From the IMG/VR virus record IMGVR_UViG_3300031974_003070, positions 1 to 30,500 of that record: 30,500 nt of DNA; one strand, written 5' to 3'. The position numbers and the translations under genes are program-made. The notes beneath the pieces are model-generated. The model worked only from the letters and a program-made list of their open reading frames with translations, did not search any database and was not told the origin of the DNA. The DNA is from a virus. How positions within the stretch are numbered: position 1 is the stretch's first letter; each line of letters opens with the position of its first letter. Of the stretch, positions 1 to 30,500 are shown piece by piece.

Positions 1-408
1 TCGACCCAAGACTTTTTCCAAGTTCACAAGTCAAACGATGACAGATTTATTTTACTGAAAGATTCCACAAGCGGTGCAAGGTATGCCTATGCCGCAATAG
101 ATGGGAACACCTCAACAGATTTACATGGTAGCTATGGTTCGCCTTCTTTGTATGTGAATGGTAGTGCAGAGAGCCCAGCTAATAGAGATGCTTTGCACAC
201 TTTGTTGTGTACGGACACTCAAGTTTTAATGTCAAGTTTAGGGGGCGATTCCTCGGCGTGGACGGGCAATATAATTTGGGGAAAGTACTCTTCAGCAAAT
301 ATCTATGACGGAAATGTGCAAGAAATAATTTTCTTCAACTCCGACCAATCAGGCAACCGCACGGGCATTGAGACGAACATTAACGACCACTTTGACATCT
401 ACACCTAA
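1..408 (+). CDS. Tail fibre / receptor-binding protein, C-terminal part (5' end outside window)
   Basis: The frame is open from base 1 to a TAA at 406-408, giving about 135 residues of a larger protein. The last ~30 residues (NVQEII, SDQSGNRT, HFDIYT) are nearly the same as the end of the complete fibre gene at 27668-28984. The rest differs, although it has the same beta-rich, Gly/Ser/Asn-rich look of a concanavalin A/LamG-like lectin fold. By comparison with that gene it is probably an adhesin at the tail tip. Its stop overlaps the next start (TAATG), so it is probably translated together with the lysis genes. The function is inferred from the partner copy and position. Confidence 0.75.
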   Translation, partial: STQDFFQVHKSNDDRFILLKDSTSGARYAYAAIDGNTSTDLHGSYGSPSLYVNGSAESPANRDALHTLLCTDTQVLMSSLGGDSSAWTGNIIWGKYSSANIYDGNVQEIIFFNSDQSGNRTGIETNINDHFDIYT

Positions 409-629
409 TGTGGTATATAGGAACATTTGAGGAGGTAACCGCCTACAACCAAAAGGTAAATGAGGCAAAGGCGTACAACGGCAACGTAACGAACAACTGG
501 GCGAACCCACGCCAACACCCTGACGGGAGCAAGTGGGCAATAATTGCACATACCACCGAACCCGATGAGGAGAGCGGCCTAACCTTGGTCGAAGAACTTA
601 CAGAAGACTGGAATAGTGAGATACTTTAA
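408..629 (+). CDS. Conserved small phage protein (73 aa), unknown
   Basis: 73-residue acidic soluble protein with no membrane segment or recognisable motif. It begins MWYIGTFEEV; the middle NWANPRQHPDGSKWAII is fully kept in the second copy (28981-29205), which argues for selection. ATG 408 overlaps the fibre stop, and its own 3' end overlaps the GTG start of the peptidase by 14 bases, so it lies inside a translationally coupled fibre-lysis operon. It could be a fibre accessory/chaperone or a lysis-associated protein; the sequence does not decide. Confidence 0.8.
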   Translation: MWYIGTFEEVTAYNQKVNEAKAYNGNVTNNWANPRQHPDGSKWAIIAHTTEPDEESGLTLVEELTEDWNSEIL

Positions 630-969
630 ACTAGAGGAGTTTGATAGCCCCGACAAACCTGGTAGCGGTGAGTTGATGTCCAAGATGCTTCTTGAGATGC
701 TAGACGAACTCAGGGGCAATTGTGGTTTTGCGCTGAAGATCAATTCAGGAGTGAGGACAGAAGAGAGGAATAAGGCGGTTGGGGGGTCACCTAACTCAAG
801 TCACCTAAAGGGCCTTGCCGTGGACATTCACTGCACTGAGTCCGCTAAGAGGTTTAAAATTGTTGACGAAGCGTTAAGGCTGGGCTTTGACAGAATCGGA
901 ATAGCTAAGACCTTCATTCATTTGGATATTGACCTAGATAAATCACCTGACGTAATTTGGATGTACTGA
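616..969 (+). CDS. M15-family peptidase endolysin
   Basis: 117 aa with the hallmarks of the small peptidase M15 (VanY/L-Ala-D-Glu endopeptidase-like) fold: SSHLKGLAVDIHC carries the zinc ligands of the H-x(6)-D type, and FIHLDID near the C terminus supplies the last histidine. Such enzymes cut peptide cross-links in peptidoglycan and serve as phage endolysins. No signal peptide is visible, so export would depend on the holin encoded next. GTG start; the second copy uses the same GTG. The stop overlaps the holin ATG (TGATG). Confidence 0.85.
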   Translation: MRYFKLEEFDSPDKPGSGELMSKMLLEMLDELRGNCGFALKINSGVRTEERNKAVGGSPNSSHLKGLAVDIHCTESAKRFKIVDEALRLGFDRIGIAKTFIHLDIDLDKSPDVIWMY

Positions 970-1238
970 TGAGTTTAAACGAACTTGGAATAAATATCGG
1001 TTTGATGATTGGCGGCTTCTTTGGCTCGCTTATAACCGTCAAGAAAAAGAGATGTGTAAAGGAGCAGCTTCTAGCCGTGGTTACTGGAACTATGGCGGCT
1101 AACTACCTTTCTCCCGTCCTTATTGAGTGGTTCAACCTAACGGGGTCTAGTCAGTATGGTACGGCCTTTATCGTAGGCTTCGGGGGCTTGAAAGTAGTAG
1201 AAGCGTTCTACGACAAATTCTTTAATAAGATCGGATGA
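969..1238 (+). CDS. Holin (LydA-like small membrane protein)
   Basis: 89 aa from ATG 969, which overlaps the endolysin stop; an upstream TTG at 957 is possible but less likely. Three hydrophobic stretches are visible: the glycine-rich IGLMIGGFFGSLI, LLAVVTGTMAANYLSPVLIEW, and FIVGFGGLKVVEAFY. A KKKR cluster follows the first. This pattern resembles LydA/superfamily III phage holins. Position directly after the endolysin supports the role of permeabilising the inner membrane. The protein is identical in the second copy although the DNA differs, a sign of strong purifying selection. Confidence 0.75.
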   Translation: MSLNELGINIGLMIGGFFGSLITVKKKRCVKEQLLAVVTGTMAANYLSPVLIEWFNLTGSSQYGTAFIVGFGGLKVVEAFYDKFFNKIG

Positions 1239-1432
1239 ATAAGCTTTTTTGGGACTTGGTTCAATTCGTTATTATCGCCCTACTTGCCTTCTCAATGTTT
1301 GCGTGGATAGAAGTTAAGTTCTTCCTTCCTACCCTAGAGAGGGACATAGTAGAACACCTACCCCACGACACCGTTTATGTTGTCAGCGATAGCGTAAAGG
1401 TGGATTCTAGCTTGGTAAAATACCTAGACTAA
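1235..1432 (+). CDS. Small single-span membrane protein of the lysis cassette
   Basis: 65 aa with one clear N-terminal transmembrane segment (LVQFVIIALLAFSMFAW, about residues 8-24) and a charged C-terminal part likely on the other side of the membrane. ATG overlaps the holin stop by ATGA. It could be a second holin/antiholin or an inner-membrane lysis accessory. The spanin role seems already filled by the gene at 27187. Its stop overlaps the stop of the convergent minus-strand gene, leaving no room for a terminator between them. Confidence 0.7.
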   Translation: MNKLFWDLVQFVIIALLAFSMFAWIEVKFFLPTLERDIVEHLPHDTVYVVSDSVKVDSSLVKYLD

Positions 1433-1602
1433 GACCCACAAGCTTCGCAGTCCTCATCATCCAGGTTGCACGTTGTTTCCTCGTCCTCGTCAAGCGACTT
1501 AACGAAGTCATCCATACTAACGGGCTCGTCCTTAATTATCTTAACAACTTTAGGGTCTAACGGTACTTCTTGGCCCGTTGTTAGGTCTACTTGTTTAGCC
1601 AT
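1429..1602 (-). CDS. Small acidic Cys-containing protein (57 aa), unknown
   Basis: 57 aa beginning MAKQVDLTTGQEVPLDP, with an acidic C-terminal half (SLDEDEE, LDDEDCEACGS) containing three cysteines. It lies at the 3' end of the minus-strand operon; its start overlaps the stop of the upstream gene by 8 bases (ATGGCTAA) and its stop overlaps the convergent lysis gene. The second copy (30005-30178) differs at only a few residues, which supports a real gene. Function unknown. Confidence 0.7.
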   Translation of the reverse strand: MAKQVDLTTGQEVPLDPKVVKIIKDEPVSMDDFVKSLDEDEETTCNLDDEDCEACGS

Positions 1603-1768
1603 TTGATTTGTTTAAGCGTTCAACTTTCTTTTCAATGAAACCTCTTTCAAGGTAGTACTTAATAAGCTTCGAATCTATGCTTGTGACTCGTTGCCCCTTC
1701 TGAATTACTCTCCCTCTTTGTCGGAAGTCCTTTAAGGCATAGTATGCAGTTCTAACACCACTAGGCAC
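1595..1768 (-). CDS. Small basic protein (57 aa), possible DNA-binding
   Basis: 57 aa from a GTG start (MPSGVRTAYYALKDFRQRGR...), rich in Lys/Arg, predicted mostly helical with a YYLERGFIEKKVERLNK end that looks like a winged-helix or HTH C-terminal part. It overlaps the upstream membrane-protein stop by a few bases and the downstream start by 8. A partial second copy is at 30370-30500. The DNA-binding idea is inference only. Confidence 0.6.
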   Translation of the reverse strand: MPSGVRTAYYALKDFRQRGRVIQKGQRVTSIDSKLIKYYLERGFIEKKVERLNKSNG

Positions 1769-9499: not shown

Positions 9500-9520
9500 T
9501 GCTAGGATAAAAAAACAATT

Positions 9521-10711
9521 ATGTGCAAACCATTAGAAACACAAGATAGACAGGCTGAATTTCAGTTTGAACAAAATGAATTGAGTTTACACGAACACCA
9601 AAGGGCTTTAATTAGTCTATTGGATAAGATGTCAGAAGATGAACGTATTGAATCAATTAATGAAATAAAAAAAGCCTTACACCAAATAAGTCCATTCAGA
9701 AATGAGCCAGTCGATTGTGTAACCTGGGTGAAATCTGATAAAGTAGTAGCCAACGAATACAACCCCAACAAAGTGGCTCCCCCCGAAATGGAGTTGTTGG
9801 AGGTTTCAATAATGAATGATGGCTATACTCAACCCATTGTTACTTGGCCTTCGGGTGACAAAATAGAGGTAGTTGATGGCTTTCATAGATCGCGTGTAGG
9901 CAAAGAGTCTAAAATAGTTAGTCATCGGGTAAAGGGCTATTTACCAACTGTTGAAATAAGGTCTGAGCAGTCGGGTAAAAATGATCGTATAGCTTCCACT
10001 ATTCGCCACAATAGGGCAAGGGGTAAACACCAGGTTGACGCTATGAGCGAAATAGTCATAGAGTTAAAAAACAGAAACTGGACTAATAAGAGAATAGCCA
10101 AACAGTTGGGAATGGACGAAGAGGAAGTTTTAAGGCTTTGTCAAATCTCAGGGCTGGAACATTTGTTCGGTGATCAGGACTTTTCCAAGGCTTGGGAATC
10201 GGGGGACTCTAATAATGTGTATAAGCCTATAACAGACGAATTAGATGCCGAAGAAATAGAAATGTATCGGACGGCAAACACTAATGACCCTAACCGCATA
10301 TTTCACACATACGACAAGTGGGAGTGTCATAAAGCTGGCTTTTATGCAAGTTCAGTACCTAGCAAAACCGCCAACGAATGTGAACAAGAATATGCAGACT
10401 TTCTAAGCGATGATAAAGCATTCAGAGAAGCTTTAGACAAGGTCATTAGTGAATGGAAATATAGTTGCGAACACTACCTAACAAACACGGCAATGAATCG
10501 CATAGCCTGGCTAGGTCAAGCTTCAATGTGTTACGCTTGCGGTATACCTTCTAAGTACTGCGGAGGCTTTAACAGACTGAGCGAGGACGAAAAGCAGACG
10601 GCTAACGAAACCGCCTTAGAGTATCTGAACAAGTGGATGCAAGCGAATGACCGCCCCACGTTAGATATGGATCAAGCCCTGAGTATTGGTAGACAAGTAG
10701 AAATATATTAA
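9521..10711 (+). CDS. ParB-like nuclease-domain protein, IbrB-like
   Basis: 396 aa. After an acidic N-terminal region, residues 70-165 form a ParB N-terminal domain: a partner-box-like segment, then IEVVDGFHRSRVG (115-127) and RHNRARGKH (162-170). A helix-turn-helix follows (NKRIAKQLGMDEEEVLRLCQ). The C-terminal ~180 residues are specific, with SMCYACGIPSKYC near the end. ParB-like proteins of this kind pair with a PAPS-reductase-like partner (IbrB with IbrA), and exactly that gene follows after one base. The DNA looks more AT-rich than its neighbours, suggesting separate origin. Role uncertain. Confidence 0.8.
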   Translation: MCKPLETQDRQAEFQFEQNELSLHEHQRALISLLDKMSEDERIESINEIKKALHQISPFRNEPVDCVTWVKSDKVVANEYNPNKVAPPEMELLEVSIMNDGYTQPIVTWPSGDKIEVVDGFHRSRVGKESKIVSHRVKGYLPTVEIRSEQSGKNDRIASTIRHNRARGKHQVDAMSEIVIELKNRNWTNKRIAKQLGMDEEEVLRLCQISGLEHLFGDQDFSKAWESGDSNNVYKPITDELDAEEIEMYRTANTNDPNRIFHTYDKWECHKAGFYASSVPSKTANECEQEYADFLSDDKAFREALDKVISEWKYSCEHYLTNTAMNRIAWLGQASMCYACGIPSKYCGGFNRLSEDEKQTANETALEYLNKWMQANDRPTLDMDQALSIGRQVEIY

Positions 10712-10712
10712 G

Positions 10713-11924
10713 ATGGCTAACAAGGTATATTTAAAGACAAACGTCTTACAAGAAGCTCAGAGCAGAATTAAGCATACGTTTGATTCAGTAGAAAGAGTTT
10801 ACATTTCTTTTAGTGGGGGCAAAGACTCTACGGTTATGACTCACCTGGTAATGGAAGAGGCTATAAAGAGAGGTAGAAAAGTAGGTTTATTGGTCATAGA
10901 CTTAGAGGCTCAATACTCAGCGACCATTGAACATATCCGTGAGGTTGTACAGATGTATAGAGAACACATTGACCTACATTGGATTTGTGCCGATCTGCTA
11001 TTAAGGAATGCGGTTTCTGATTATCAGCCAAAGTGGGCTTGCTGGGATAGTGAGAATGAATCTATATGGGTTCGCCAAAAGCCCGAAGAAGCGGCAGACT
11101 TAAGCCAGTACGACTTTTATTTTCCCAAAATGGAGTTTGAGGAATTTATGGTCTTGTTCGGTAAGTGGTACGCCCAGGGTCAAACGTGTGGGGCTTTTAT
11201 TGGTATTCGTTCCGATGAGTCATTGCACCGTTATAGGGCTATTGTAGCGCAAAAGAAAAACCTGACCCTTAACGGATGGAAGTGGACAACCAAAATAGCC
11301 AACAAGCTCTTTAATATTTACCCCATATACGATTGGAGGACAGAAGATATATGGGTATATCATAGCAAGAGAAAAGACCTTCCCCACAATAAGGTATATG
11401 ATATGATGACCAAAGCGGGGGTGAAGTTTTCAAACCAGCGTTTGTGTCAGCCCTTTGGCGATGATCAGAAAAAAGGTCTTTGGCTATATCACATACTTGA
11501 GCCCACAACGTGGTACAAGCTTTTAAATCGTGTCTCAGGCGTAAACTCAGGGGCTTTGTATGTAAATGAAACGGGTAATGTGTCGGGGAATAAGGATGTA
11601 ACAAAGCCAGCTAATCATACTTGGGAATCTTATACCAACTTTTTACTCCGATCCTTACCCGAACCAATGCAAGTGCATTACCGTGAGCGTTTCGTTAAGT
11701 TCATCGCTGGGTGGAAGCAGAGAGGGTATAAGCAAATACCTGACCAGGCCCCGCACGACTTAGAGGTTAAATGTTGGGCTCCTTCGTGGAAAAGAATGGC
11801 TCGGTGTATTCTCAGGAATGACTATTATTGCAAGGGTTTAGGACAGACTCAGCCTAAAAGCGAAGCTTACGAAAAGTATAAGCAAATTAAGGCAAAAAGA
11901 AAGCTTGAAGAGCAAATGGGTTAA
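10713..11924 (+). CDS. PAPS-reductase-like ATP pyrophosphatase, IbrA-like
   Basis: 403 aa. SFSGGKDST (residues 32-40) is the PP-loop of adenine-nucleotide alpha-hydrolases, as in PAPS reductase, IbrA and DndC. YPIYDWRTEDIW and KVYDMMTKAGV are also typical of the IbrA/DUF3440 branch. Cysteines cluster at the C terminus (KCWAP...RCILRNDYYCKG). A classical sulphate-assimilation role is unlikely in a phage; regulation or sulphur-based nucleic-acid modification are possible. It is paired with the ParB-like gene (one-base gap), and the pair precedes the replication genes. Confidence 0.85.
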   Translation: MANKVYLKTNVLQEAQSRIKHTFDSVERVYISFSGGKDSTVMTHLVMEEAIKRGRKVGLLVIDLEAQYSATIEHIREVVQMYREHIDLHWICADLLLRNAVSDYQPKWACWDSENESIWVRQKPEEAADLSQYDFYFPKMEFEEFMVLFGKWYAQGQTCGAFIGIRSDESLHRYRAIVAQKKNLTLNGWKWTTKIANKLFNIYPIYDWRTEDIWVYHSKRKDLPHNKVYDMMTKAGVKFSNQRLCQPFGDDQKKGLWLYHILEPTTWYKLLNRVSGVNSGALYVNETGNVSGNKDVTKPANHTWESYTNFLLRSLPEPMQVHYRERFVKFIAGWKQRGYKQIPDQAPHDLEVKCWAPSWKRMARCILRNDYYCKGLGQTQPKSEAYEKYKQIKAKRKLEEQMG

Positions 11925-11925
11925 A

Positions 11926-12255
11926 ATGACAGAAAAAGAAAAAAAGACCTTGCGTGAGGCTATCCTGATAATGGAACGGCTTTTAGACGATGGGCAGACA
12001 GACCTATTTGGTGACACACTAAGCAACCAAAGAAGACCACCGAGATTTAAGAAACCCACCAAGGAAGAGGTAACCACCTACTTCGTAGAAAAGGGCTATA
12101 CGGCTTGGCGTGGTGCTGAGATGTGGAACTATTACGAAGGCCTGAACTGGTGTAACTCTAAAGGGAAACCCGTCCACTCGTGGAAGCTTACCGCTCAAAG
12201 TGTTTGGATGACTCCCGAACACAAGCTAACCAAGAAGACGGGCTTTGATCTATGA
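11926..12255 (+). CDS. Replication accessory protein with DnaT/DnaD-associated C-terminal motif
   Basis: 109 aa from ATG 11926, one base after the previous stop. The C-terminal half has the motif P-x-x-E-E-V-x-x-Y ... YYEGLNW...GKPVHSWKL, found at the C termini of many phage replication initiators and helicase-loader-like proteins. The N-terminal part is charged and helical. Its stop overlaps the start of the DnaB-like helicase (ATGA), which supports a helicase-loading or replisome role. Confidence 0.6.
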   Translation: MTEKEKKTLREAILIMERLLDDGQTDLFGDTLSNQRRPPRFKKPTKEEVTTYFVEKGYTAWRGAEMWNYYEGLNWCNSKGKPVHSWKLTAQSVWMTPEHKLTKKTGFDL

Positions 12256-14332: not shown

Positions 14333-15446
14333 CTTTTTACGGCAAAACCACGAGTCTAAGAGGCTATTAAGCCTAAGAGGGGGGACAAGGTCAGGGAAGT
14401 CTTATTCAGCCGTTCAGTTCCTTATTGAACTTTGCTACAAGTACCCAAACGCTGGGATGGTTATTACCATTGCTAGGCAAACACTACCAGCTTTGAAGGC
14501 TTCAACCCTTCGGGACTTTGTTGAGATTCTGCAAAGCTTTGAGGCATACGTTGAAGAAGACCACAACAAGACCGAGGGAACCTATAAGCTTAGAGGGAAC
14601 ACCGTTGAATTTATTTCTTTGGATCAACCCCAAAAGCTAAGAGGTAGGAAACGGGATGCGCTTTTTTTGGACGAGTGTAATGAAATAACCGCTGAGTCAT
14701 TTAGACAACTATCATACAGAACCACGGGGTTTATCATCCTTAGTTATAACCCTAGCGACCTGGACGGCTGGTGGTACGAAGTGGAAGCTAGAGAAGATGC
14801 CGCTTTAATTGTCACCACCTACAAGGACAACCCACACTTACCAAAGTCAATTATTGCCGAAATAGAGAGCCTTAAAATGTCAAGCCCTGAAGATTGGGCG
14901 GTTTTTGGTTTGGGTGAGAGGGGACGAGGTAAGAAGGGCAGAATTTATAGGAACTTCACCAAGGTCGAAGAACTAGACTTTTCGGAGTGTTCAGACGTTT
15001 GCGTTGGTATCGACTTCGGCTTTAGCCAAGACCCTACGGCAGTCGTTCTAGTCGGCAAGCATAATGATCGGGTCTATGTAGATGAACTGGTGTACGAAAC
15101 CCATCTTACTAATACTGAGTTGGTTGAGAGAATAAAACCCCATTGCGAAGGATTAAGGGTTATTTGCGATAGTGCAGAACCTAAGAGCATAGCGGAACTA
15201 AGAAGAGGGGGGTTAAATGCAATTGGTGCGATTAAGGGGCCTGACTCTATTAGAAACGGGATCAAACTTCTACAATCCAAGGAGGTTCTATATACAAGAA
15301 GAAGTAAGGACTTAGAAAGGGAACTAGGGTCATACGTTTGGAACCTGGACAAAAACGAGAGGCCAACTGAAAAGCCCATCGATTCCTTCAACCACCTTCT
15401 TGACGCTCTGAGGTATAGTGTGGGGTTTTTGTATAAACGGGGCTAA
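14313..15446 (+). CDS. terL: Terminase large subunit
   Basis: 377 aa from ATG 14313 (a TTG two codons upstream at 14307 is an alternative). ATPase: Walker A GGTRSGKS (23-30), Walker B DALFLDE (115-121), motif III FIILSYNPSD (140-149). Nuclease: acidic residues in VGIDFGFSQDP (D234), ICDSAEPKSI (D287) and LLDALRYS (D364). Both halves are complete. This is the DNA-translocating and cutting motor at the portal. It overlaps the small subunit by 20 bases. The family resembles the PBSX/Terminase_3 group; cleavage type is not inferred. Confidence 0.93.
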   Translation: MTNPNLDFLRQNHESKRLLSLRGGTRSGKSYSAVQFLIELCYKYPNAGMVITIARQTLPALKASTLRDFVEILQSFEAYVEEDHNKTEGTYKLRGNTVEFISLDQPQKLRGRKRDALFLDECNEITAESFRQLSYRTTGFIILSYNPSDLDGWWYEVEAREDAALIVTTYKDNPHLPKSIIAEIESLKMSSPEDWAVFGLGERGRGKKGRIYRNFTKVEELDFSECSDVCVGIDFGFSQDPTAVVLVGKHNDRVYVDELVYETHLTNTELVERIKPHCEGLRVICDSAEPKSIAELRRGGLNAIGAIKGPDSIRNGIKLLQSKEVLYTRRSKDLERELGSYVWNLDKNERPTEKPIDSFNHLLDALRYSVGFLYKRG

Positions 15447-15456
15447 AGGGCTAAAT

Positions 15457-15464
15457 TACTTTTG
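15457..15464 (+). promoter_or_regulatory. Promoter box TACTTTTG, N4 before portal ATG
   Basis: TACTTTTG-TGTT-ATG at the usual 4-base gap. It supports ATG 15469 over the longer frame starting at 15418. Confidence 0.6.
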
Positions 15465-15468
15465 TGTT

Positions 15469-16734
15469 ATGGCATTACTCGACTTTCTAAAGTACGACCG
15501 AAAAGAGTCTAAGATTCAAGAGCAGTTAAGCAAACTACTCACGGCCCAGCTAACCCACTTGGGGGCTAACTCAGCAATTTGGCAACCGTTTAACTTTGAG
15601 AGTCTACTAGAACAAGCCTACCAAAAGAACCCTGACGTATATTCAGTAATTAACTTCCTTTCTAAGAAGATGTCTGACGTGCCTTTGTGTGCGTATGACT
15701 CCGAGGGGAACAAGATAGAATACGAACCACTTGAGAGGGTCAAGGAGCAACCCAATAGCTACCAAAGTTTTAACGACTTCCTAGCTAACCTTTATTCGAA
15801 CTACCTTCTAACGGGTAACGGCTATATCTATTGTCAGAAGGGTGAAACCGCAATTACTGAAGGTCGTATTCTGCTCGTGGAAGCTTTGCCTAGTGTATAC
15901 ATAGAAGCCATCTCAGGTAAGAGCGGTAGAGGGGTAGCAGAATACAGATTCACAGAAGGCTATATAAACACGAAGATGGACGCAGACAATGTGATCCACA
16001 TTAAGAACGTGCAAATGGCTTTCGGTAGTGGTGAACACCTTTACGGACAAAGCCCACTTCAAGCCGCCTTTAAATCAATTCAGACATCTAATAGCGGTTA
16101 TGATTCTCAAAAGGCAAGTATGGACAACCAAGGGGCGGCTGGTATCTTATATAACAAAGGTATCGACTTCGCTGGTGGTAAAGATGCGTGGACACAAGAC
16201 GAGATTAACGAGATGCGCCAAAGCATTAAGGAAGTCCGAAAGAACTCAAATAGTAATTCTATTGGTGTTGGTGTCGGGGACTTGGGTTATATCAACTTCG
16301 GTATTACTCCAGTCGATATGGGGATAATGGAAGTCCTAGACCTTTCCCTTAGTGACGTTTGCAACGCCTATAATCTGCCCGTTGGTCTGTTCAACAACAA
16401 CGATTCTAGCACGTTCTCAAATCAGGAGCAGTACAGAAAGCAAGCTTACACGGACTCTATCCTTCCTACTCTGAGCAAGTTTGAATATTCCTTCAACCGT
16501 CTGTTTATGAATGACGAGGGGGTTTATTTCAAGTTTGACACTAGTGAGATTCCCGAACTTCAGGCCGACAAGAAGGAGCAAGTTTCCGCTTTAAGTGGTG
16601 CGTATTGGATGACCCCGAACGAAAAAAGGGAGATGATGGGGCTTGCCGCTATTGAGGATGCTGATATGAACCAAGTCTATGTACCTTCTAGCCTTACGCC
16701 AATCGATCTAAGCGGCTTTGAAGGTGAAGAATGA
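15469..16734 (+). CDS. Portal protein, HK97 family
   Basis: 421 aa from ATG 15469 (MALLDFLKYDRKES...). Family features: NPDVYSVINFLSKKMSDVPL near the N terminus, NYLLTGNGYIYCQ, the conserved YGQSPLQAAFKSIQTSN, then SLSDVCNAYNLPVGLFNNND with STFSNQEQYRKQAYTDSILP. Twelve copies form the ring through which DNA enters the capsid and to which the tail attaches. The 3' end overlaps the MuF gene by ATGA. Confidence 0.92.
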   Translation: MALLDFLKYDRKESKIQEQLSKLLTAQLTHLGANSAIWQPFNFESLLEQAYQKNPDVYSVINFLSKKMSDVPLCAYDSEGNKIEYEPLERVKEQPNSYQSFNDFLANLYSNYLLTGNGYIYCQKGETAITEGRILLVEALPSVYIEAISGKSGRGVAEYRFTEGYINTKMDADNVIHIKNVQMAFGSGEHLYGQSPLQAAFKSIQTSNSGYDSQKASMDNQGAAGILYNKGIDFAGGKDAWTQDEINEMRQSIKEVRKNSNSNSIGVGVGDLGYINFGITPVDMGIMEVLDLSLSDVCNAYNLPVGLFNNNDSSTFSNQEQYRKQAYTDSILPTLSKFEYSFNRLFMNDEGVYFKFDTSEIPELQADKKEQVSALSGAYWMTPNEKREMMGLAAIEDADMNQVYVPSSLTPIDLSGFEGEE

Positions 16735-18458
16735 GCCCAGCGGACAAGCGATATTTAGACGTAAATAGACGTAGGGACAAGATTTCTAGGCGTTACGCTC
16801 GTGAACTCACGGAAGAAATCTATAAGGCCAATCTAAAGTATATAAAGGGGGCTGACCTAAGTAACCTGGAAAACGTCATCTACCCCGTAAACTACCCTTC
16901 TACTGACGTAGAGAAGCTAGTTGAAGACCTTTACTTTGATGCTGGCTATTTATTCTCTGACCAGTTCGTTAAGGACTTTGCACAAGGTAAGTTTAAGAGT
17001 GATCTAAGCGAAGGTATACCCAAGGTGCAATGGAAGACCGAGGCTATTGGGAAATACTTTCGGAGCAACCTAAACCAAATAAAGACCATAAGCCTAACTT
17101 CTGAGATTGGGGCACAAAGGCTACTTAATTCCGTTGTCTATGATGCTATACAAGACGGCAAAGGGATAAGGGCGGTAACCGATGCACTCAAGAACGACAA
17201 GTTTCTAAGGAGCCTTAAGAGAACTTCACGCTTCCAAGCTGAACGAATAGCCCGAACCGAAACCCTTTCAGCCGCTTCGTATGGTGAGTATATAGGCTCA
17301 CAAGAGTTATTTCAGAAGTACGGGGTTACAATGGGCAAGTATTGGATCGCTAAGAAGGATGCTAGAACCCGTAATTCTCACAACGAGATGAAACGGAGCG
17401 AAACCATAGGAGCAGAAGAAGACTTTGAGGTTGGCGGCTCTAAGATGCAGTTTCCAGGTGATAGAAGAGGAGGCCCAAGCCAAGTAATAAACTGCCGTTG
17501 TGCGTTAGGTTGGCGAAGAATCGAAGAGGAAACACCAGCACCCCCACCACCTCAAGCGAACATACCAACGCCACAAATACCCGAAAAGCCAACGGGAACA
17601 ATTACGCCAAATAGAATAAACTCAATAGAGGACGCTGAAAAATATTTCAAAGAGAACGGGGTTCACCATTATAGCGTTGGGGCTAAGAGGACTTCCGTGC
17701 ATAAGGCAATAGCGCAAGCCCACGCAGACACACTAGGGGAGTTCGGGGTTGAACTTAGAACGGTTCACGACTCTAAATATTTTAATGATGTTTATTCTAA
17801 GGGTCAGGGGGTGAATTACGAAGGCTCTAGGCATAAAAGAATGAGTGGGAATACTAACGCTCAAGCAATGGGGGAGGTTTGGAGGGAGAAAGGAGGTGTT
17901 AGGCCAACTGGCGTAACCTTAAAAAAGTCTTATATTGAGCAAACCCCTAATAAATATCAGCCAGCACACCTAAAGGATTTAAAGCAATTAGAGGAGAATG
18001 TTAGGATTTATGAAGACAATATAAGCTATTACCAAGAACAGATAGCAAAGGAAACCGACCCAAAGAAAATAAGCAACCTACAACACAAGGCCAGTCTTCA
18101 GAAAATAGGACTTCAAAAAAATATTAGGATCATAGAGAAGCTTAAATCCTCCCCGTGGTCTTATGGGTCAACGGCTGAAACCATTGAGGAGGCAGTTTAT
18201 ACAACTTCCGTACACGAGTTCGGACACATTTTAGACTATGCTACCAAAAACGAACTAAGAAGGATAGCCTCTAAAAGACACGGGCTAAATGGCCCGACTC
18301 GTTACGGGTCTTCCAATTCAGAGGAATTAGTGGCTGAGATATTCGCTGGCTATCACAGGGGTGACCTTGCACCTGAGTTTGTGGAAACTTACAAAGAGTT
18401 TGAAAGGTATATAAACGAGAACATTAAGGAGGTAAGAGAACGAGCAAGATACTTTTAA
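16731..18458 (+). CDS. MuF head morphogenesis protein fused to a C-terminal zincin-like domain
   Basis: 575 aa, about twice the length of a bare MuF protein. Residues 1-265 are a MuF-type head domain: FQAERIARTETLSAASYGEY, the GKYWIAKKDARTRNSHNEM segment and VINCRCALGWRR. A Pro-rich linker (APPPPQANIPTPQIPEKP) follows, then a domain with HEFGH (495-499) and SEELVAEIFAGY (from 530), matching a zinc metallopeptidase HExxH plus downstream Glu ligand. MuF proteins are packaged inside virions, and polymorphic toxin domains on their C termini are known. Delivery of a protease effector into the host is therefore plausible inference. Confidence 0.88.
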   Translation: MSPADKRYLDVNRRRDKISRRYARELTEEIYKANLKYIKGADLSNLENVIYPVNYPSTDVEKLVEDLYFDAGYLFSDQFVKDFAQGKFKSDLSEGIPKVQWKTEAIGKYFRSNLNQIKTISLTSEIGAQRLLNSVVYDAIQDGKGIRAVTDALKNDKFLRSLKRTSRFQAERIARTETLSAASYGEYIGSQELFQKYGVTMGKYWIAKKDARTRNSHNEMKRSETIGAEEDFEVGGSKMQFPGDRRGGPSQVINCRCALGWRRIEEETPAPPPPQANIPTPQIPEKPTGTITPNRINSIEDAEKYFKENGVHHYSVGAKRTSVHKAIAQAHADTLGEFGVELRTVHDSKYFNDVYSKGQGVNYEGSRHKRMSGNTNAQAMGEVWREKGGVRPTGVTLKKSYIEQTPNKYQPAHLKDLKQLEENVRIYEDNISYYQEQIAKETDPKKISNLQHKASLQKIGLQKNIRIIEKLKSSPWSYGSTAETIEEAVYTTSVHEFGHILDYATKNELRRIASKRHGLNGPTRYGSSNSEELVAEIFAGYHRGDLAPEFVETYKEFERYINENIKEVRERARYF

Positions 18459-18459
18459 T

Positions 18460-18639
18460 ATGCAGTATAAAACACCAAGGTGCTTCTCTTGTAAGCATTA
18501 CGAAGGGGGCAGAAAGTGCAAGGCTTATAAAGTCATTCCCGAAGACATCTTTTTTAAGGGTGAATTACATAGAAAACTAAGGGGGGACGAGCAAGAGGAA
18601 GTCAAATATTCAAAGCCTAGACGGATAAAGGGGGCTTAG
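18460..18639 (+). CDS. Small Cys-rich protein downstream of MuF
   Basis: 59 aa. RCFSCKHYEGGRKCKAY (residues 7-23) has three cysteines and a histidine that could bind zinc. The rest is IPEDIFFKGELHRKL and a basic end. Similar small proteins occur beside MuF genes in other phages, as I recall. ATG lies one base after the MuF stop. The spot is where an immunity protein for the MuF C-terminal domain would be expected, but no evidence beyond position supports that. Confidence 0.65.
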   Translation: MQYKTPRCFSCKHYEGGRKCKAYKVIPEDIFFKGELHRKLRGDEQEEVKYSKPRRIKGA

Positions 18640-18648
18640 TGGTATATC

Positions 18649-18656
18649 TATCTTAG
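18649..18656 (+). promoter_or_regulatory. Promoter-like box TATCTTAG, N5 before ATG 18662
   Basis: TATCTTAG-ACCCT-ATG, the TAnnTTAG variant at one base more than the usual gap. It may start the protease-capsid transcript. Confidence 0.45.
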
Positions 18657-18661
18657 ACCCT

Positions 18662-19648
18662 ATGTTTAAACCCACCCAAGAGATTATAGACAAGGCCCAA
18701 GGGGTCTTAGACTATGTGGCTGAAAATGGTTGGGGGACTTGTGGAACGGACGTAGGGAAGCAGAGAGCAAACGACTTAGCCAAGGGCCGTGAACTTTCCC
18801 TAGATGTCGTGAAGAGGGTTTATAGCTACCTAGCTAGGGCTTCTGAGTACTATGACGGGGGAAGCTATGAGAAGTGCGGAAATTTGATGTATGACGCTTG
18901 GGGAGGCAAACCAGCCTATTACTGGTCTAAAAAGATTGTGCAAGAAAACAAGAGTATGGATAAAGTATACACCACCAAGAACACGAGCCTAGAGTTAAAG
19001 GACGTGGACACCGAAAAGGGGACGGTAGCTGGCTACTTCTCAGCCTTTGACAACATTGATAGCCACGGGGACATAATGCGAAGAGGCTCTTACGCTAAGA
19101 GTATTCAGGAGAACGGGCCAATGGGTAAAGGGCGTATCGGTCATCTGTATATGCACGACCCACTAAACCCTATTGGGAAGATCACGGAACTTAAAGAAGA
19201 TGACTTCGGGCTTTACTTTGAATCTAAGATGTCTAAGCGTCCTTTCGCTCAAGATGTGCTTACGATGTACCAAGAGGGTATCATTAAAGAGCATTCAGTA
19301 GGTTTCGTTCCGCTCGTGTTCACCGAGAGACGTGAAGAAGGCAAGCTAAAGGGCTACGAAATAACCGAAACCAAACTAAGGGAAGGTTCAAGCGTGGTCT
19401 TTGGTGCTAACGAGAACACCCCTTTTGTTGGAATGAAGAGCCTTGAAGAGATAGAAGGCAGAATGGAGGTGTTGGAAAGCTTCATTAAAGGGGCTAATGT
19501 GACTGATACTACATTTGTTACGATTGAAAATGAATTGTCGCAACTCAAAGCGTTAATAAATACACTCGTGACCAAGGAGCCGTCTAAGGACACTCCGAAT
19601 AACGAGCCGTTGAACGTCTTAGAATTGTGGAAGTCAATTAATGTTTAA
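18662..19648 (+). CDS. Prohead protease with an extra N-terminal domain
   Basis: 328 aa. Residues 1-100 are an extra domain (GTDVGKQRANDLAKGRELS, VVKRVYSYLARA, YDAWGGKPAYYWSKK) of a type seen as an appendage to phage head proteins. Residues 105-255 are an HK97-type prohead protease: TVAGYFSAFDNIDSHGDIM, HLYMHDPLNPIGKI (catalytic His) and EHSVGFVPL (catalytic Ser). The C terminus is a helical scaffold-like tail. The enzyme cleaves scaffold/delta domains during head maturation. Its end overlaps the capsid start by 8 bases. Confidence 0.88.
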   Translation: MFKPTQEIIDKAQGVLDYVAENGWGTCGTDVGKQRANDLAKGRELSLDVVKRVYSYLARASEYYDGGSYEKCGNLMYDAWGGKPAYYWSKKIVQENKSMDKVYTTKNTSLELKDVDTEKGTVAGYFSAFDNIDSHGDIMRRGSYAKSIQENGPMGKGRIGHLYMHDPLNPIGKITELKEDDFGLYFESKMSKRPFAQDVLTMYQEGIIKEHSVGFVPLVFTERREEGKLKGYEITETKLREGSSVVFGANENTPFVGMKSLEEIEGRMEVLESFIKGANVTDTTFVTIENELSQLKALINTLVTKEPSKDTPNNEPLNVLELWKSINV

Positions 19649-20879
19649 CCTTCCTAAAACGAGAAAAGTGGAAGAGATCAAAACACAGTTGGAGGCCATC
19701 AAAAAAGACTTGGATGGTGCTATCAACGCTGGTGCAGAAGCATCAAAAGAATACACTCAAGAAAAGCTGAACGCTTTCAACGAGGTACTGGAGAAGTCTA
19801 ACGCTTCTATTGCCAACCTGGAGGCTCGTGTGAACGAACTCAAGAGCAACGGAATGGAGGACAAGGACGCAGTAGCTAAGACTACTCAGGAGGCCCTTAT
19901 GAACGCTATGGACTCTGACGGGTTCCGTTCATTTGTTAAGGGTGAGTCTAGCCGTTTCAACATCGAAGACCTCAAGGTTAAGGCCGTTGGTGATATGCCT
20001 ACTGCTGACACTACGACTCAGATCGTTGACAACGCTTATTTGCCTATCCTTCCTGAAGTTGAGCGCAAGTTTCGTGTAAGAAACGCACTCCGTCAAGGTT
20101 CTATGAGCGGTGACGCAGTTCAGTTCCCCGATGTTAGCGGTGGCGAAGGTGCGCCTACTACCGTTGCTGAGGGTGCGGTTAAGCCTCAAATGGACAAGGA
20201 TTTCGCTTTGGTTACTTACAACGCTCAGACCATCGCTGGTTATATGCGTCTGTCTAACCAAATGCTTTCCGACTTCCAAGGAATCACATCTTACCTGGCT
20301 TACGAACTCCCACGCCAAATCTACAATGTTGAGGACACTCAGTTGTTGACTGGTAACGGAACGGCTCCTAACCTCTATGGTTTGAGCAATGGTGCTAAGA
20401 GTGATGCCGAGTTGGTTGGTAGTGCTTTCGAGAACGCTATCGCTAATGGTCTTTCGACTAAGTTCGATTGTATCCTTGCTGGTATCGGAATCCTGAAGGC
20501 TAGCGACTACGCTCCTGACGCGATCCTTATGAACCCACAAGATGTAGTTCAGTTGGCTTACGCTCGTGACACGAACGGACAATACACCGCTCCCGTCATC
20601 TTCGTAGACAACACGCCTACTATCTTCGGTCTTCCAATTCAGGAGTCTTCAGCGGTAACGGCTGGATCATTCTTCGTAATGGATTCTCAGAACGTAGGGC
20701 AGTTGTTCCAGCGTGAGGGCATCTCTGTAAGGTTCTTCGAGCAAGACGGTGACAACGTAACTTACAACCAAACTACGGTTCGGGGTGAGATGCGTGAGGC
20801 CTTTGCTAAGTTCCATTCGGATGCTTGCTTCACCGATACGTTTGCTAACGTCACTACCGTTATTGAAGCTGCTGCTTAA
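19641..20879 (+). CDS. Major capsid protein, HK97 fold
   Basis: 412 aa. Residues 1-75 are a coiled-coil delta/scaffold domain (VEEIKTQLEAIKKDLDGAIN, LEKSNASIANLEARVNELK) likely removed by the protease encoded upstream. The rest shows HK97 capsid features: DNAYLPILPEVERKFRVRNALRQG, TIAGYMRLSNQMLSD, DAILMNPQDVVQLAYARD, and a terminal VRGEMREAFAKFHSDACF. A strong terminator follows the stop by 20 bases, as expected for the most abundant virion protein. Confidence 0.95.
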   Translation: MFNLPKTRKVEEIKTQLEAIKKDLDGAINAGAEASKEYTQEKLNAFNEVLEKSNASIANLEARVNELKSNGMEDKDAVAKTTQEALMNAMDSDGFRSFVKGESSRFNIEDLKVKAVGDMPTADTTTQIVDNAYLPILPEVERKFRVRNALRQGSMSGDAVQFPDVSGGEGAPTTVAEGAVKPQMDKDFALVTYNAQTIAGYMRLSNQMLSDFQGITSYLAYELPRQIYNVEDTQLLTGNGTAPNLYGLSNGAKSDAELVGSAFENAIANGLSTKFDCILAGIGILKASDYAPDAILMNPQDVVQLAYARDTNGQYTAPVIFVDNTPTIFGLPIQESSAVTAGSFFVMDSQNVGQLFQREGISVRFFEQDGDNVTYNQTTVRGEMREAFAKFHSDACFTDTFANVTTVIEAAA

Positions 20880-27667: not shown

Positions 27668-28984
27668 ATGAATCTGAACCACTTCTACCATTATTACAAG
27701 TCTAAGAGCGGTGGGGTTTCCAATTTGCTTAAAGCAACCGAGGATTTCGATAGTTCTATCGATTGGAACAAGCTTCCTAGCACGGATGCCCCAACGGTTT
27801 CGGGTGGTATAACAGACCCCAACGGGGGTAGCGATGCCCAAAGAATCAACTTCACCGACAATAGGCAAGCACGGGTTCAGCAACGGGTGAGTTTGTCCGC
27901 TTCTACCCAATACACTTTTAGCGTTTACGCTCGTGTAAATACGGGAACTCAGCAGTTCAGACTAAGGAACGTAACCCTTGGCGAAGCTGAAGCTAAGACG
28001 GCAACGACTAGCTGGACAAGGTTTGAATACACCTTCACCACTACCACGGGGGGTAATTATGATCTGAGCATTCAGAATAGCAGCAATGACGCTAGAACGG
28101 TTGAGTTTTGGGGTGCTATGCTTAACGTGGGGGCTAGTGCTAATGATTACGTCAAGGTTGACCCAAGTATTAGCGGTTCTACACCAACACCAGCTTACTC
28201 AGGATTCGGGGACACTTACGGGGATGTAACGGCTTATTACTCTTTAAGGAAGTTCACCGAGGCGGAAACGCTCAACGCGATACGGGTGAGAAGGTCAAGC
28301 GATGACACCGAGCAAGACATTGGCTTTGATGCTAACGGAGACCTTGACACCACGGCTCTGCTTGCTTTTGTAGGAACGGGAGGCACAGACAACGGCTATG
28401 TAACAACCTTCTACGACCAGAGCGGAAACGGCAACAATGCGACCAACGCGACTTCAACCGAGCAGCCGCTTATCGTGTCAGGGGGAAGTGTAGTAACCGA
28501 GAACGGCAAGGCGGCTCTTGAGTTCGATGGGGTAAACGATGAGCTTGTAAACTCATCCATTACATTAACGCAACCCTTTACCTACTTCCACGCTCGGAAA
28601 TACAGAAATACGACTTCCCCGAGAATGGCTTTAAGTTTAAGCACCTCTACAAATTCTTGGGCTGATTACTTCGATGGTTCATCGTTAAGAGCGTATTTCG
28701 GCAGCACAGGGGCAAAATCAGAAGGCTTCAATACCGACCAAAACCTTTGGGGCGCAGTCGTAAACGGCACAAGCTCGGAGGTTTTGCTGAATGGAACTTC
28801 AACGGCTGCAAACTTGGGAACGAATAACGGGGATGCGGTAGTAATTGGCGACCGAGGCAATATATCGGGAATCAATGCAGCCGTGAACGTGCAGGAGATA
28901 ATCATCTTCGACTCCGACCAAAGCGGCAACCGTACAAACATGGAGACGAACATCAACGACCACTTTGACATCTACACGCCATGA
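27668..28984 (+). CDS. Tail fibre / receptor-binding protein with carbohydrate-binding domains
   Basis: 438 aa. Residues ~18-165 form a CBM/discoidin-like jelly roll (SASTQYTFSVYARVNTGTQQ, GNYDLSIQNSSNDARTVEFWGAMLN). Residues ~175-300 follow the arabinofuranosidase-B-like pattern often found in phage fibres: YYSLRKF, AIRVRRSSDDTEQDIGFD, LLAFVG, TTFYDQSGNGNNATNAT, ALEFDGVND. Residues ~300-438 are a ConA/LamG-like lectin. It probably binds host surface glycans; glycosidase activity is not implied. The last ~30 residues match the fibre fragment at 1-408 while the rest of the C-terminal lectin differs. The stop overlaps the next ATG. Confidence 0.85.
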   Translation: MNLNHFYHYYKSKSGGVSNLLKATEDFDSSIDWNKLPSTDAPTVSGGITDPNGGSDAQRINFTDNRQARVQQRVSLSASTQYTFSVYARVNTGTQQFRLRNVTLGEAEAKTATTSWTRFEYTFTTTTGGNYDLSIQNSSNDARTVEFWGAMLNVGASANDYVKVDPSISGSTPTPAYSGFGDTYGDVTAYYSLRKFTEAETLNAIRVRRSSDDTEQDIGFDANGDLDTTALLAFVGTGGTDNGYVTTFYDQSGNGNNATNATSTEQPLIVSGGSVVTENGKAALEFDGVNDELVNSSITLTQPFTYFHARKYRNTTSPRMALSLSTSTNSWADYFDGSSLRAYFGSTGAKSEGFNTDQNLWGAVVNGTSSEVLLNGTSTAANLGTNNGDAVVIGDRGNISGINAAVNVQEIIIFDSDQSGNRTNMETNINDHFDIYTP

Positions 28985-29205
28985 GTTGGTATATAGGAAC
29001 ATTTGAGGAGGTAATCACCTACAACGCCAAGGTCAACGAGGCGAAGGCGTACAATGGCAACGTAACGAACAACTGGGCGAACCCACGGCAACACCCTGAC
29101 GGGAGCAAGTGGGCAATAATCGCACATAGCACGGAACCCAATGAAGAGAGCGGCCTGACCTTAGTAGAGGAATTAACAGAAGACTGGAATAGTGAGGTAC
29201 TTTAA
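28981..29205 (+). CDS. Conserved small phage protein (74 aa), second copy
   Basis: 74 aa, homologue of 408-629 with one extra N-terminal Ser (MSWYIG) and about eight substitutions. ATGA overlap with the complete fibre gene. Unknown function; retention of the same fibre-73/74aa-endolysin order supports a real link to fibre or lysis. Confidence 0.8.
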   Translation: MSWYIGTFEEVITYNAKVNEAKAYNGNVTNNWANPRQHPDGSKWAIIAHSTEPNEESGLTLVEELTEDWNSEVL

Positions 29206-29545
29206 GATAAAGGAGTTCGATAGCCCCGACAAACCTGGAAGCGGTAAGTTGATGGATGAAAGTCTTTTGACTATGCTAGATGAGTTAAGGGAAAATTGTG
29301 GCTTTCCGCTGAAGATAAATTCAGGAGTGAGAACAGAAGAGAGGAATAAGGCGGTTGGGGGGTCGGCTAACTCAAGTCACCTAAAGGGCCTTGCCGTGGA
29401 CATTCATTGCACCGAGTCCGCTAAGAGGTTTAAGATTATTGACGAAGCGTTAAGGCTGGGCTTTGACAGAATAGGAATAGCTAAGACCTTCATTCATTTG
29501 GATATTGACCTAGATAAATCACCTGACGTAATTTGGACATACTGA
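29192..29545 (+). CDS. M15-family peptidase endolysin, second copy
   Basis: 117 aa from GTG; zinc motif residues (SSHLKGLAVDIHC and FIHLDID) are unchanged from the copy at 616-969. Substitutions concentrate in residues 4-50, away from the active site. It appears fully functional. Confidence 0.85.
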   Translation: MRYFKIKEFDSPDKPGSGKLMDESLLTMLDELRENCGFPLKINSGVRTEERNKAVGGSANSSHLKGLAVDIHCTESAKRFKIIDEALRLGFDRIGIAKTFIHLDIDLDKSPDVIWTY

Positions 29546-29814
29546 TGAGTTTAAACGAATTAGGCATAAATATAGGTTTGATGATTGGCGGCTTTTTCGG
29601 GTCGCTTATAACCGTCAAAAAAAAGAGATGTGTAAAGGAGCAGCTTCTAGCCGTGGTCACGGGAACTATGGCCGCTAACTACCTTTCTCCCGTCCTTATT
29701 GAATGGTTCAACCTAACGGGTTCCTCTCAGTATGGTACGGCCTTTATAGTAGGGTTCGGGGGGCTGAAAGTAGTAGAAGCGTTCTACGACAAATTCTTTA
29801 ACAAGATAGGATGA
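29545..29814 (+). CDS. Holin, second copy
   Basis: 89 aa, the same protein as encoded at 969-1238 residue for residue, although the DNA differs at synonymous positions (for example in the codons for ELGIN). ATG overlaps the endolysin stop. Confidence 0.75.
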   Translation: MSLNELGINIGLMIGGFFGSLITVKKKRCVKEQLLAVVTGTMAANYLSPVLIEWFNLTGSSQYGTAFIVGFGGLKVVEAFYDKFFNKIG

Positions 29815-30008
29815 ATAAGCTTTTTTGGGACTTGGTTCAATTCGTCATTATCGCTCTACTTGCCTTCTCAATGTTTGCGTGGATCGAGGTTAAATTCTTC
29901 CTTCCTACCCTAGAAAAGGATATAGTAGAACACCTACCCCGCGACACCGTTTATATTGTCAGCGATAGCGTAGAGGTTGATTCTATCCTAGTACACTACC
30001 TAGACTAA
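29811..30008 (+). CDS. Small single-span membrane protein, second copy
   Basis: 65 aa. The N-terminal membrane span is identical to the copy at 1235-1432; several changes lie in the C-terminal 30 residues (EKDIVEHLPRDTVYIVSDSVEVDSI). Coupled to the holin by ATGA. Confidence 0.7.
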   Translation: MNKLFWDLVQFVIIALLAFSMFAWIEVKFFLPTLEKDIVEHLPRDTVYIVSDSVEVDSILVHYLD

Positions 30009-30178
30009 GACCCACAAGCTTCGCACTCCTCATCGTCCAGGTTGCAAGTTGTTTCCTCGTCCTCGTCAAGCGACTTAACGAAGTCATCCATACTAACTGG
30101 CTCGTCTTTAATTATCTTAACAACTTTAGGGTCTAACGGTACTTCTTGGCCCGTTGTTAAATCTACTTGTTTAGGCAT
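30005..30178 (-). CDS. Small acidic Cys-containing protein, second copy
   Basis: 57 aa, homologue of 1429-1602 with A2P and D51E changes (MPKQVDL..., DDEECEACGS). Its start overlaps the stop of the inserted 68-aa gene by 8 bases (ATGCCTAA), replacing the overlap with the basic 57-aa gene seen in copy A. Confidence 0.7.
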   Translation of the reverse strand: MPKQVDLTTGQEVPLDPKVVKIIKDEPVSMDDFVKSLDEDEETTCNLDDEECEACGS

Positions 30179-30377
30179 TGTTTTGGGGGTTTAGGAATTT
30201 TTGAAGTTCTAAAATGAAATCAGCTAACTCTTCTTGGTTAAGGGGAAAATCTAAACACTCTTCAAAAGCGTTTACACCAATGAAAACATCTCCCTCAACG
30301 CTAGAACTTGTTTCTACAAATAGTTCTTGTTGTAAGCAACCTTCTTGTTTTTTTATTATACTTACCTTCTTATGCAT
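30171..30377 (-). CDS. 68-aa protein present only in copy B
   Basis: 68 aa (MHKKVSIIKKQEGCLQQELF...), with a helical C-terminal half (NQEELADFILELQKFLN). It has 8-base ATG-overlaps at both ends (ATGCATAA upstream, ATGCCTAA downstream), so it fits seamlessly into the operon. Copy A lacks it. Its codon use looks more AT-rich than its neighbours. No family recognised. Confidence 0.65.
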   Translation of the reverse strand: MHKKVSIIKKQEGCLQQELFVETSSSVEGDVFIGVNAFEECLDFPLNQEELADFILELQKFLNPQNNA

Positions 30378-30500
30378 TTGGTTTATTTAAGCGTTCAACT
30401 TTCTTCTCTATGAAACCTCTTTCAAGGTAGTACTTAATAAGCTTCGAATCTATGCTTGTGACTCGTTGCCCCTTCTGAATTACTCTCCCTCTTTGTCGGA
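30370..30500 (-). CDS. Small basic protein, second copy (5' end outside window)
   Basis: C-terminal ~43 residues of the homologue of 1595-1768; the end reads KPNA instead of KSNG because its stop overlaps the inserted gene's ATG. Truncated by the window edge, not by mutation as far as can be seen. Confidence 0.6.
   Translation of the reverse strand, partial: RQRGRVIQKGQRVTSIDSKLIKYYLERGFIEKKVERLNKPNA

What the first reader, a model, noticed from the sequence alone, without database searches (positions are those of the whole stretch)
16731..18639. MuF capsid protein carrying a C-terminal HExxH domain, with a small adjacent Cys-rich gene
After a normal MuF domain and a Pro-rich linker comes a ~290-residue region ending in a zincin motif (HEFGH, then SEELVAEIFAGY). 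Such architecture is that of packaged effectors or polymorphic toxins ejected with the DNA. The 59-aa Cys/His protein immediately downstream stands where an immunity or metallochaperone protein would be. The protease could instead act in the capsid, for example on scaffold or internal proteins, in addition to the HK97-type protease encoded next.
Basis: partly seen in the sequence, partly recalled or inferred. Interest (0 to 1): 0.62.

Follow-up and report, generated by a model that had tools for sequence, protein, structure and literature searches.

The report
Swappable protease cartridge in phage heads
A head protein of an apparently lytic Bacteroidota phage carries a zinc-protease tail that, together with the small gene behind it, is exchanged between near-identical phages as one cassette, as expected of an injected effector with its own keeper protein, although that function has not been shown.

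Summary
ORF 16731-18458 is a 575-aa MuF protein with a Pro-rich linker and a C-terminal domain (CTD) bearing HEFGH and a downstream E-x3-E; a 59-aa Cys/His gene follows after 1 nt. A profile of six such CTDs matches lethal-factor-type and Pro-Pro endopeptidase zincins (E 5e-9 and 5e-4), so it is a remote ATLF-like zincin. In 19 sibling contigs, DNA is ~91-93% identical up to 17585 and again from 18649. The stretch between, exactly CTD plus small gene, is replaced in complete siblings by a different zincin and a different small gene. The same zincin-for-zincin swap with its partner occurs between two cultured lytic Flavobacterium phages, lotta8 and pippi8, while relative FPSV-S1 has a short MuF with no CTD. 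The CTD is therefore dispensable for heads and moves as a cassette with its partner. The Cys/His family recurs behind unrelated MuF proteins, always with a metallopeptidase-like CTD, but also stands alone in chromosomes. Best reading: a packaged, ejected zinc-protease effector whose partner restrains or equips it in the producing cell. Toxicity, packaging and immunity are untested. This is a new variant of the known MuF polymorphic effectors.

The parts
16731..18458 (+). MuF minor head protein with C-terminal zincin, 575 aa
17130..17507 (+). MuF domain (PF04233), residues 134-259
   Evidence: E=4e-11
17532..17603 (+). Pro-rich linker (TPAPPPPQANIPTPQIPEKPTGTI); the left cassette junction (17585) lies in it
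17586..18648 (+). exchangeable cassette: CTD plus partner gene, bounded by about 91-93% identical DNA on both sides in siblings
18030..18404 (+). ATLF-like zincin core, residues about 434-558
18213..18227 (+). HEFGH, residues 495-499 (zinc ligands and general base, inferred)
18324..18338 (+). E532-L-V-A-E536, invariant Glu pair of the second helix; one is the likely third zinc ligand
18460..18639 (+). 59-aa Cys3His partner (C8, C11, C20, H37 conserved)
15418..16734 (+). portal protein; its stop overlaps the MuF start
18662..19648 (+). separate HK97-type head maturation protease (Peptidase_S78), with an N-terminal extension
19641..20879 (+). major capsid protein

Best explanation
The MuF N-terminus docks the protein on the portal inside the procapsid (inferred from SPP1 gp7). 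The C-terminal ATLF-like zinc protease is cargo: it rides in the head, leaves with the DNA and cleaves one or more proteins of the newly infected cell, such as a defence factor or a takeover target. The small gene behind it is its dedicated partner. It most likely keeps the protease inactive in the producing cell, or loads or sequesters its zinc, and is not needed in the virion. CTD and partner form one cassette that phages exchange by recombination between the Pro/Ala-rich linker and the next gene's start. Shown here: the architecture, zincin homology, joint swapping, recurrence of the pair, and dispensability of the CTD. Inferred: packaging, ejection, protease activity, target, and restraint by the partner.
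For: N-terminal 283 residues are 96-99% identical in siblings, while DNA identity stops at 17585 and resumes at 18649. The siblings with complete genes carry another zincin (HEYGHA...AEFFAH; model pLDDT 90.7) and another 78-83 aa gene. Divergence at synonymous sites is 0.1-0.5 in MuF-N, about 0.4 in the S78 gene and about 1 to saturated in the CTD, so CTD alleles are exchanged, not merely mutating fast. Lotta8-2 and pippi8-1 are 98.9% and 100% identical on the two sides of a stretch that again is exactly CTD + partner, zincin for zincin. FPSV-S1 has a 253-aa MuF without CTD and a methylase gene in the slot. Seven of seven window-type MuF-zincins are followed at once by a 53-71 aa ORF (window, L081, L084, L112, lotta8, Vibrio ZX4290, HTVC026P), four of them the Cys/His family. 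A profile of the CTDs hits lethal-factor and Pro-Pro endopeptidase chains. One MuF protein (L056) carries both zincin types in tandem. SPP1 gp7 is portal-bound, dispensable for assembly and needed for efficient infection (PMC6316719).
Against: No experiment shows packaging, ejection or toxicity. Many Bacteroidota prophages with the sibling-type zincin have no small ORF directly behind it, so a partner is not obligatory for that type. The Cys/His family also stands alone in chromosomes and follows JAMM-like MuF CTDs, so it is not specific to one zincin. The window's cassette was found in no second contig, and the contig may be composite. The window CTD itself could not be modelled (pLDDT 44).
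Confidence: 0.6

Rival explanations
1. The zincin works inside the head or on its own chain: it trims internal proteins or cleaves the Pro-rich linker to free itself (as proposed for P1 DdrB), and the partner is an assembly helper.
For: Iyer et al. 2017 propose autoprocessing for phage zincins (PMC5512222). The linker is Pro-rich and the nearest solved relatives include Pro-Pro endopeptidases.
Against: A separate S78 head protease follows. The CTD is exchanged for unrelated zincins in otherwise near-identical heads and is absent in FPSV-S1, so no head substrate seems to need it.
Confidence: 0.18
2. A classical interbacterial polymorphic toxin of a temperate phage: the protease harms non-lysogens and the 59-aa protein is the lysogen's immunity protein.
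For: The architecture fits MuF toxins; [quoted passage not shown]
Against: No phage integrase domain in the window or seven sibling records and none among the ORFs scanned with PHROGs; lotta8 and pippi8 are described as lytic (PMC7077304). A lytic phage has no lysogen to protect.
Confidence: 0.12
3. A variant of the best explanation in which the 59-aa protein is a zinc-handling factor (donor or scavenger) for MuF metallopeptidases in general, not an inhibitor.
For: Conserved Cys3His. It follows both zincin and JAMM-like MuF CTDs.
Against: Other MuF zincins have acidic partners without this Cys/His set (L081, Vibrio ZX4290, HTVC026P, pippi8) or none. The family also occurs alone in genomes.
Confidence: 0.3
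4. The swap is an assembly artefact: the contig joins two phages inside the MuF gene.
For: The contig ends are a 90% identical near-repeat, which suggests strain mixing; there is no second copy of the junction.
Against: Both junctions keep the frame and gene spacing; the pair has homologues in the same MuF position in lotta8, L084 and L112; the same kind of swap is seen in complete genomes of cultured phages.
Confidence: 0.04

Closest known systems
MuF polymorphic toxins (Jamet et al. 2017, PMC5576092; Zhang et al. 2012, PMC3482391)
   Same: MuF N-terminus, variable C-terminal enzyme, small ORF directly behind; metallopeptidase CTDs are already known there (20% of putative MuF toxins).
   Different: Jamet et al. 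found them only in temperate phages and reported none with a known toxin domain in virulent ones; here the pair is in phages without a recognised integrase, one cultured and described as lytic. Exchange of CTD + partner is seen directly between near-identical genomes, zincin for zincin.
ATLF-like / M34 zincins (lethal factor, Pro-Pro endopeptidase)
   Same: HExxH plus a downstream Glu helix; a profile of six phage CTDs matches the solved chains (E 5e-9 and 5e-4).
   Different: Below Pfam's ATLF cut-off (18.3 against 27.4 bits); different N-terminal part of the CTD, fused to a phage head protein, no known target.
Polyvalent-protein zincin MPTases (Iyer et al. 2017, PMC5512222)
   Same: Zincins carried by phage head or ejected proteins; effector or autoprocessing roles proposed.
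   Different: No match of the window CTD to MPTase-PolyVal (PF18818); a simple two-part protein, not a large multidomain one.
Bxa/Bsi/BAH of Bacteroides stercoris prophage (PMC11699363)
   Same: Prophage-borne enzyme effector of Bacteroidota with cognate immunity proteins and a polymorphic family.
   Different: An ADP-ribosyltransferase; sequence relation to the window was not tested.

Membership tests
MuF polymorphic toxins | N-terminal MuF domain | tested here: met
   PF04233 E=4e-11, above cut-off
MuF polymorphic toxins | C-terminal extension with an enzyme domain also used as a toxin elsewhere | tested here: met
   Remote ATLF-like zincin; ALF-metallopeptidase is listed as a toxin domain by Zhang 2012
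MuF polymorphic toxins | C-terminal domain exchanged by recombination behind a constant N-terminus | tested here: met
MuF polymorphic toxins | Small ORF directly downstream | tested here: met
   59 aa, 1 nt after the stop
MuF polymorphic toxins | Encoded by a temperate phage (observed association, not strictly a definition) | tested here: inconclusive
   No integrase in the window or siblings, but records may be partial; lotta8/pippi8 described as lytic
MuF polymorphic toxins | Toxic to cells lacking the partner; delivered with the virion | not testable with these tools
   needs experiments
ATLF / M34 (Pfam PF07737) | Score above Pfam's gathering cut-off | tested here: not met
   15.7-18.3 bits against 27.4
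ATLF / M34 (Pfam PF07737) | HExxH and a downstream catalytic Glu in homologous positions | tested here: met
   Invariant in six CTDs; the profile matches solved ATLF-like chains. The assignment of the third ligand rests on general knowledge
MPTase-PolyVal (PF18818) | Profile match | tested here: not met
   No match of the window CTD; only 2 of 25 sibling-type members match weakly
Polymorphic-toxin immunity proteins | Partner exchanged together with its effector domain | tested here: met
Polymorphic-toxin immunity proteins | Specific to one effector domain | tested here: inconclusive
   The Cys/His family pairs with zincin and JAMM-like MuF CTDs and also stands alone
Polymorphic-toxin immunity proteins | Neutralises the effector | not testable with these tools
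   needs co-expression and binding assays

The most novel reading that the evidence does not exclude
Lytic phages keep a cassette slot in the MuF gene into which zinc protease + keeper pairs are loaded and exchanged in an arms race. The Cys3His keepers are a new family of metallopeptidase regulators, and the stand-alone chromosomal copies are host antidotes against ejected phage proteases.
Probability: 0.15. Interest if true: 0.8.

Novelty: new variant of a known kind. Interest (0 to 1): 0.57.

Why it matters
MuF toxins were described as restricted to temperate phages and mostly inferred from architecture. Here two sets of near-identical phages differ, over the regions compared, chiefly in a protease + partner cassette, and one set is in culture on one host strain (lotta8-1, lotta8-2 and pippi8-1 on Flavobacterium sp. 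LMO8). This makes it directly testable what a head-packaged protease does in a new host, and whether the small Cys/His protein restrains it.

Tried and rejected
Close relatives of the window CTD were sought in IMG/VR, GTDB contigs, phages and plasmids: none. They were found only by chaining through weak homologues. Four further pattern-based viral scans built on the CTD or the 59-aa protein failed or found nothing; A6 was built on a wrong stretch of L081 and not used. AlphaFold of the window CTD with a two-row alignment was poor (pLDDT 44) and was not used for fold search. hhalign of the sibling zincin profile against the window CTD aligned only the linker (probability 15%), so the two zincins are not shown to be homologous beyond the fold class. 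Foldseek found no significant solved match for the sibling model; VIA-align put lethal-factor chains first at only Z 6.9, which may mean just a common zincin arrangement. PHROGs and NCBIfam gave no significant match for the window CTD and nothing for P0002. In one search the window row wrongly had the 59-aa protein attached; the conclusion (no similarity to sibling CTDs) was repeated with the right sequence. The hit of the window-type HMM to pippi8 is partly due to the linker shared with lotta8 and is not taken as homology of the zincin.

Full report
WHAT IS THERE. The window is a virus record of 30,500 bases with terminase, portal, MuF, S78 head protease, major capsid and tail genes of a tailed phage; the terminase is closest to phages of Bacteroidota (38% identity). 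ORF 16731-18458 is a 575-aa MuF protein: MuF domain at residues 134-259, a Pro-rich linker, then a ~285-residue C-terminal domain (CTD). HEFGH is residues 495-499; E532 and E536 lie in the next conserved helix. The 59-aa gene (18460-18639) starts 1 nt after the MuF stop.

IS IT A ZINCIN? Pfam alone gives only a sub-threshold ATLF hit (15.7-18.3 bits against 27.4). Homologues found step by step (L077, L081, L084, Flavobacterium phage lotta8, Vibrio phage ZX4290, Pelagibacter phage HTVC026P, L112) share H-E-x-G-H and E-x3-E. A profile of six of the MuF CTDs matches lethal-factor chains (E 5e-9 to 2e-5) and Pro-Pro endopeptidases (from 5e-4) in the PDB, whereas the profile of the sibling zincin does not (E 0.16). 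A model built without the window finds the window at E 6e-13 among 2794 ORFs. I call it ATLF-like, not a member of the Pfam family. Catalysis itself is inferred.

THE CASSETTE SWAP. Nineteen IMG/VR loci match residues up to about 298-349 only. At DNA level they are about 91-93% identical to the window up to base 17585, have no similarity from 17586 to 18648, and, where they reach that far, match again (85-94%) from 18649, 13 bases before the S78 start codon. Where the gene is complete, the siblings carry a different zincin and a different 78-83 aa gene. MuF residues 1-283 are 96-99% identical. Among siblings dS is 0.1-0.5 in MuF-N and about 0.4 in the S78 gene, but about 1 to saturated in the CTD: the CTD is replaced by exchange from a divergent pool. 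The sibling zincin gives a confident model (pLDDT 90.7), is common at MuF C-termini in Bacteroidota prophages, and one MuF (L056) carries both zincin types in tandem.

A SECOND, INDEPENDENT CASE IN CULTURE. Flavobacterium phage lotta8-2 has a MuF with a window-type zincin and a 66-aa Cys/His partner. Its relative pippi8-1, on the same host strain, is 98.9% identical up to the linker and 100% identical from the next gene on, over the region compared. In between it has another HExxH-bearing CTD (HEIGH) and an unrelated 70-aa acidic gene. In the more distant FPSV-S1 the MuF ends after 253 residues and a DNA methylase gene occupies the slot. The CTD is thus neither conserved nor needed for head building. 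Both lotta8 and pippi8 are grouped as lytic phages by their describers (PMC7077304), and lotta8-2 has no annotated integrase.

THE SMALL PARTNER. The 59-aa protein belongs to a family with conserved C8, C11, C20 and H37 (HMM without it finds it at E 1.2e-10). It has no Pfam, PHROG or NCBIfam family and no solved relative. All six cases seen directly behind a MuF gene have a metallopeptidase-like CTD: zincin in the window, L084, L112 and lotta8; a JAMM-like HNHPRG motif in L098 and L113 (the JAMM reading rests on the motif alone, Pfam is silent). But in 395 Bacteroidota genomes it was found in 19, mostly alone, and in 4 of 369 Gammaproteobacteria. Other MuF zincins have unrelated acidic partners, and several sibling-type prophage MuFs have none. 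A dedicated role beside MuF metallopeptidases is supported; whether it inhibits, delivers zinc or does something else is open.

HOW IT PROBABLY WORKS. From SPP1, gp7 (MuF) is brought into the procapsid by the portal in few copies, is dispensable for assembly and helps infection start (PMC6316719). By analogy the zincin is cargo that enters the next host with the DNA. The producing cell must tolerate an active protease late in infection, which is what a co-transferred keeper would allow even in a lytic phage; the new host lacks the keeper. The changing zincins and their replacement by other zincins suggest targets under selection, such as defence proteins, but no target is known. Every step from packaging on is inferred.

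WHAT IS KNOWN. MuF effectors with metallopeptidases and small downstream ORFs are known (PMC5576092; PMC3482391), as are zincins in phage polyvalent proteins (PMC5512222). New here, as far as the papers read show: direct in-place exchange of CTD + partner between near-identical phages, zincin for zincin, twice; occurrence in phages that appear lytic, where Jamet et al. [quoted passage not shown] and the Cys/His partner family.

LIMITS. The window contig may be composite, since its ends are a 90% near-repeat. The window's own cassette has no second copy in the collections searched. Absence of an integrase domain does not prove a lytic life style. Counts of pairs are small and come from sampled genomes.

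Noticed in passing
window 313-1725 and 28886-30500: The contig ends are a 90-97% identical near-repeat with endolysin and holin genes at both ends: the genome is probably about 28.6 kb and the contig wraps round onto a second strain.
   Followed up: partly
window 9519-11925: A 2.4-kb block with a ParB-like and a PAPS-reductase/DUF3440 gene is absent from siblings L002, L003, L013 and L018, whose DNA joins 9518 to 11926; DNA-modification or defence-related cargo is possible.
   Followed up: no
L056 1676-4564: One MuF protein of 962 aa carries a window-type zincin (HELGH) and a sibling-type zincin (HEYGH) in tandem, followed by an 87-aa gene.
   Followed up: partly
L098 and L113: MuF proteins with a C-terminal HNHPRG...SPxD (JAMM-like) domain directly followed by a Cys/His small gene; in L098 the MuF frame is broken.
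   Followed up: no
L091-L108: The Cys/His small family stands alone in many chromosomes of the Bacteroidota sample, with no MuF gene beside it; function unknown.
   Followed up: partly
L117 4602-5516: In Flavobacterium phage FPSV-S1 a Dcm-type DNA methylase gene lies where related phages have the MuF CTD cassette.
   Followed up: no
L077 1456-2139 (-): A free-standing, apparently secreted 227-aa relative of the window zincin core in a genome of the Bacteroidota sample.
   Followed up: no
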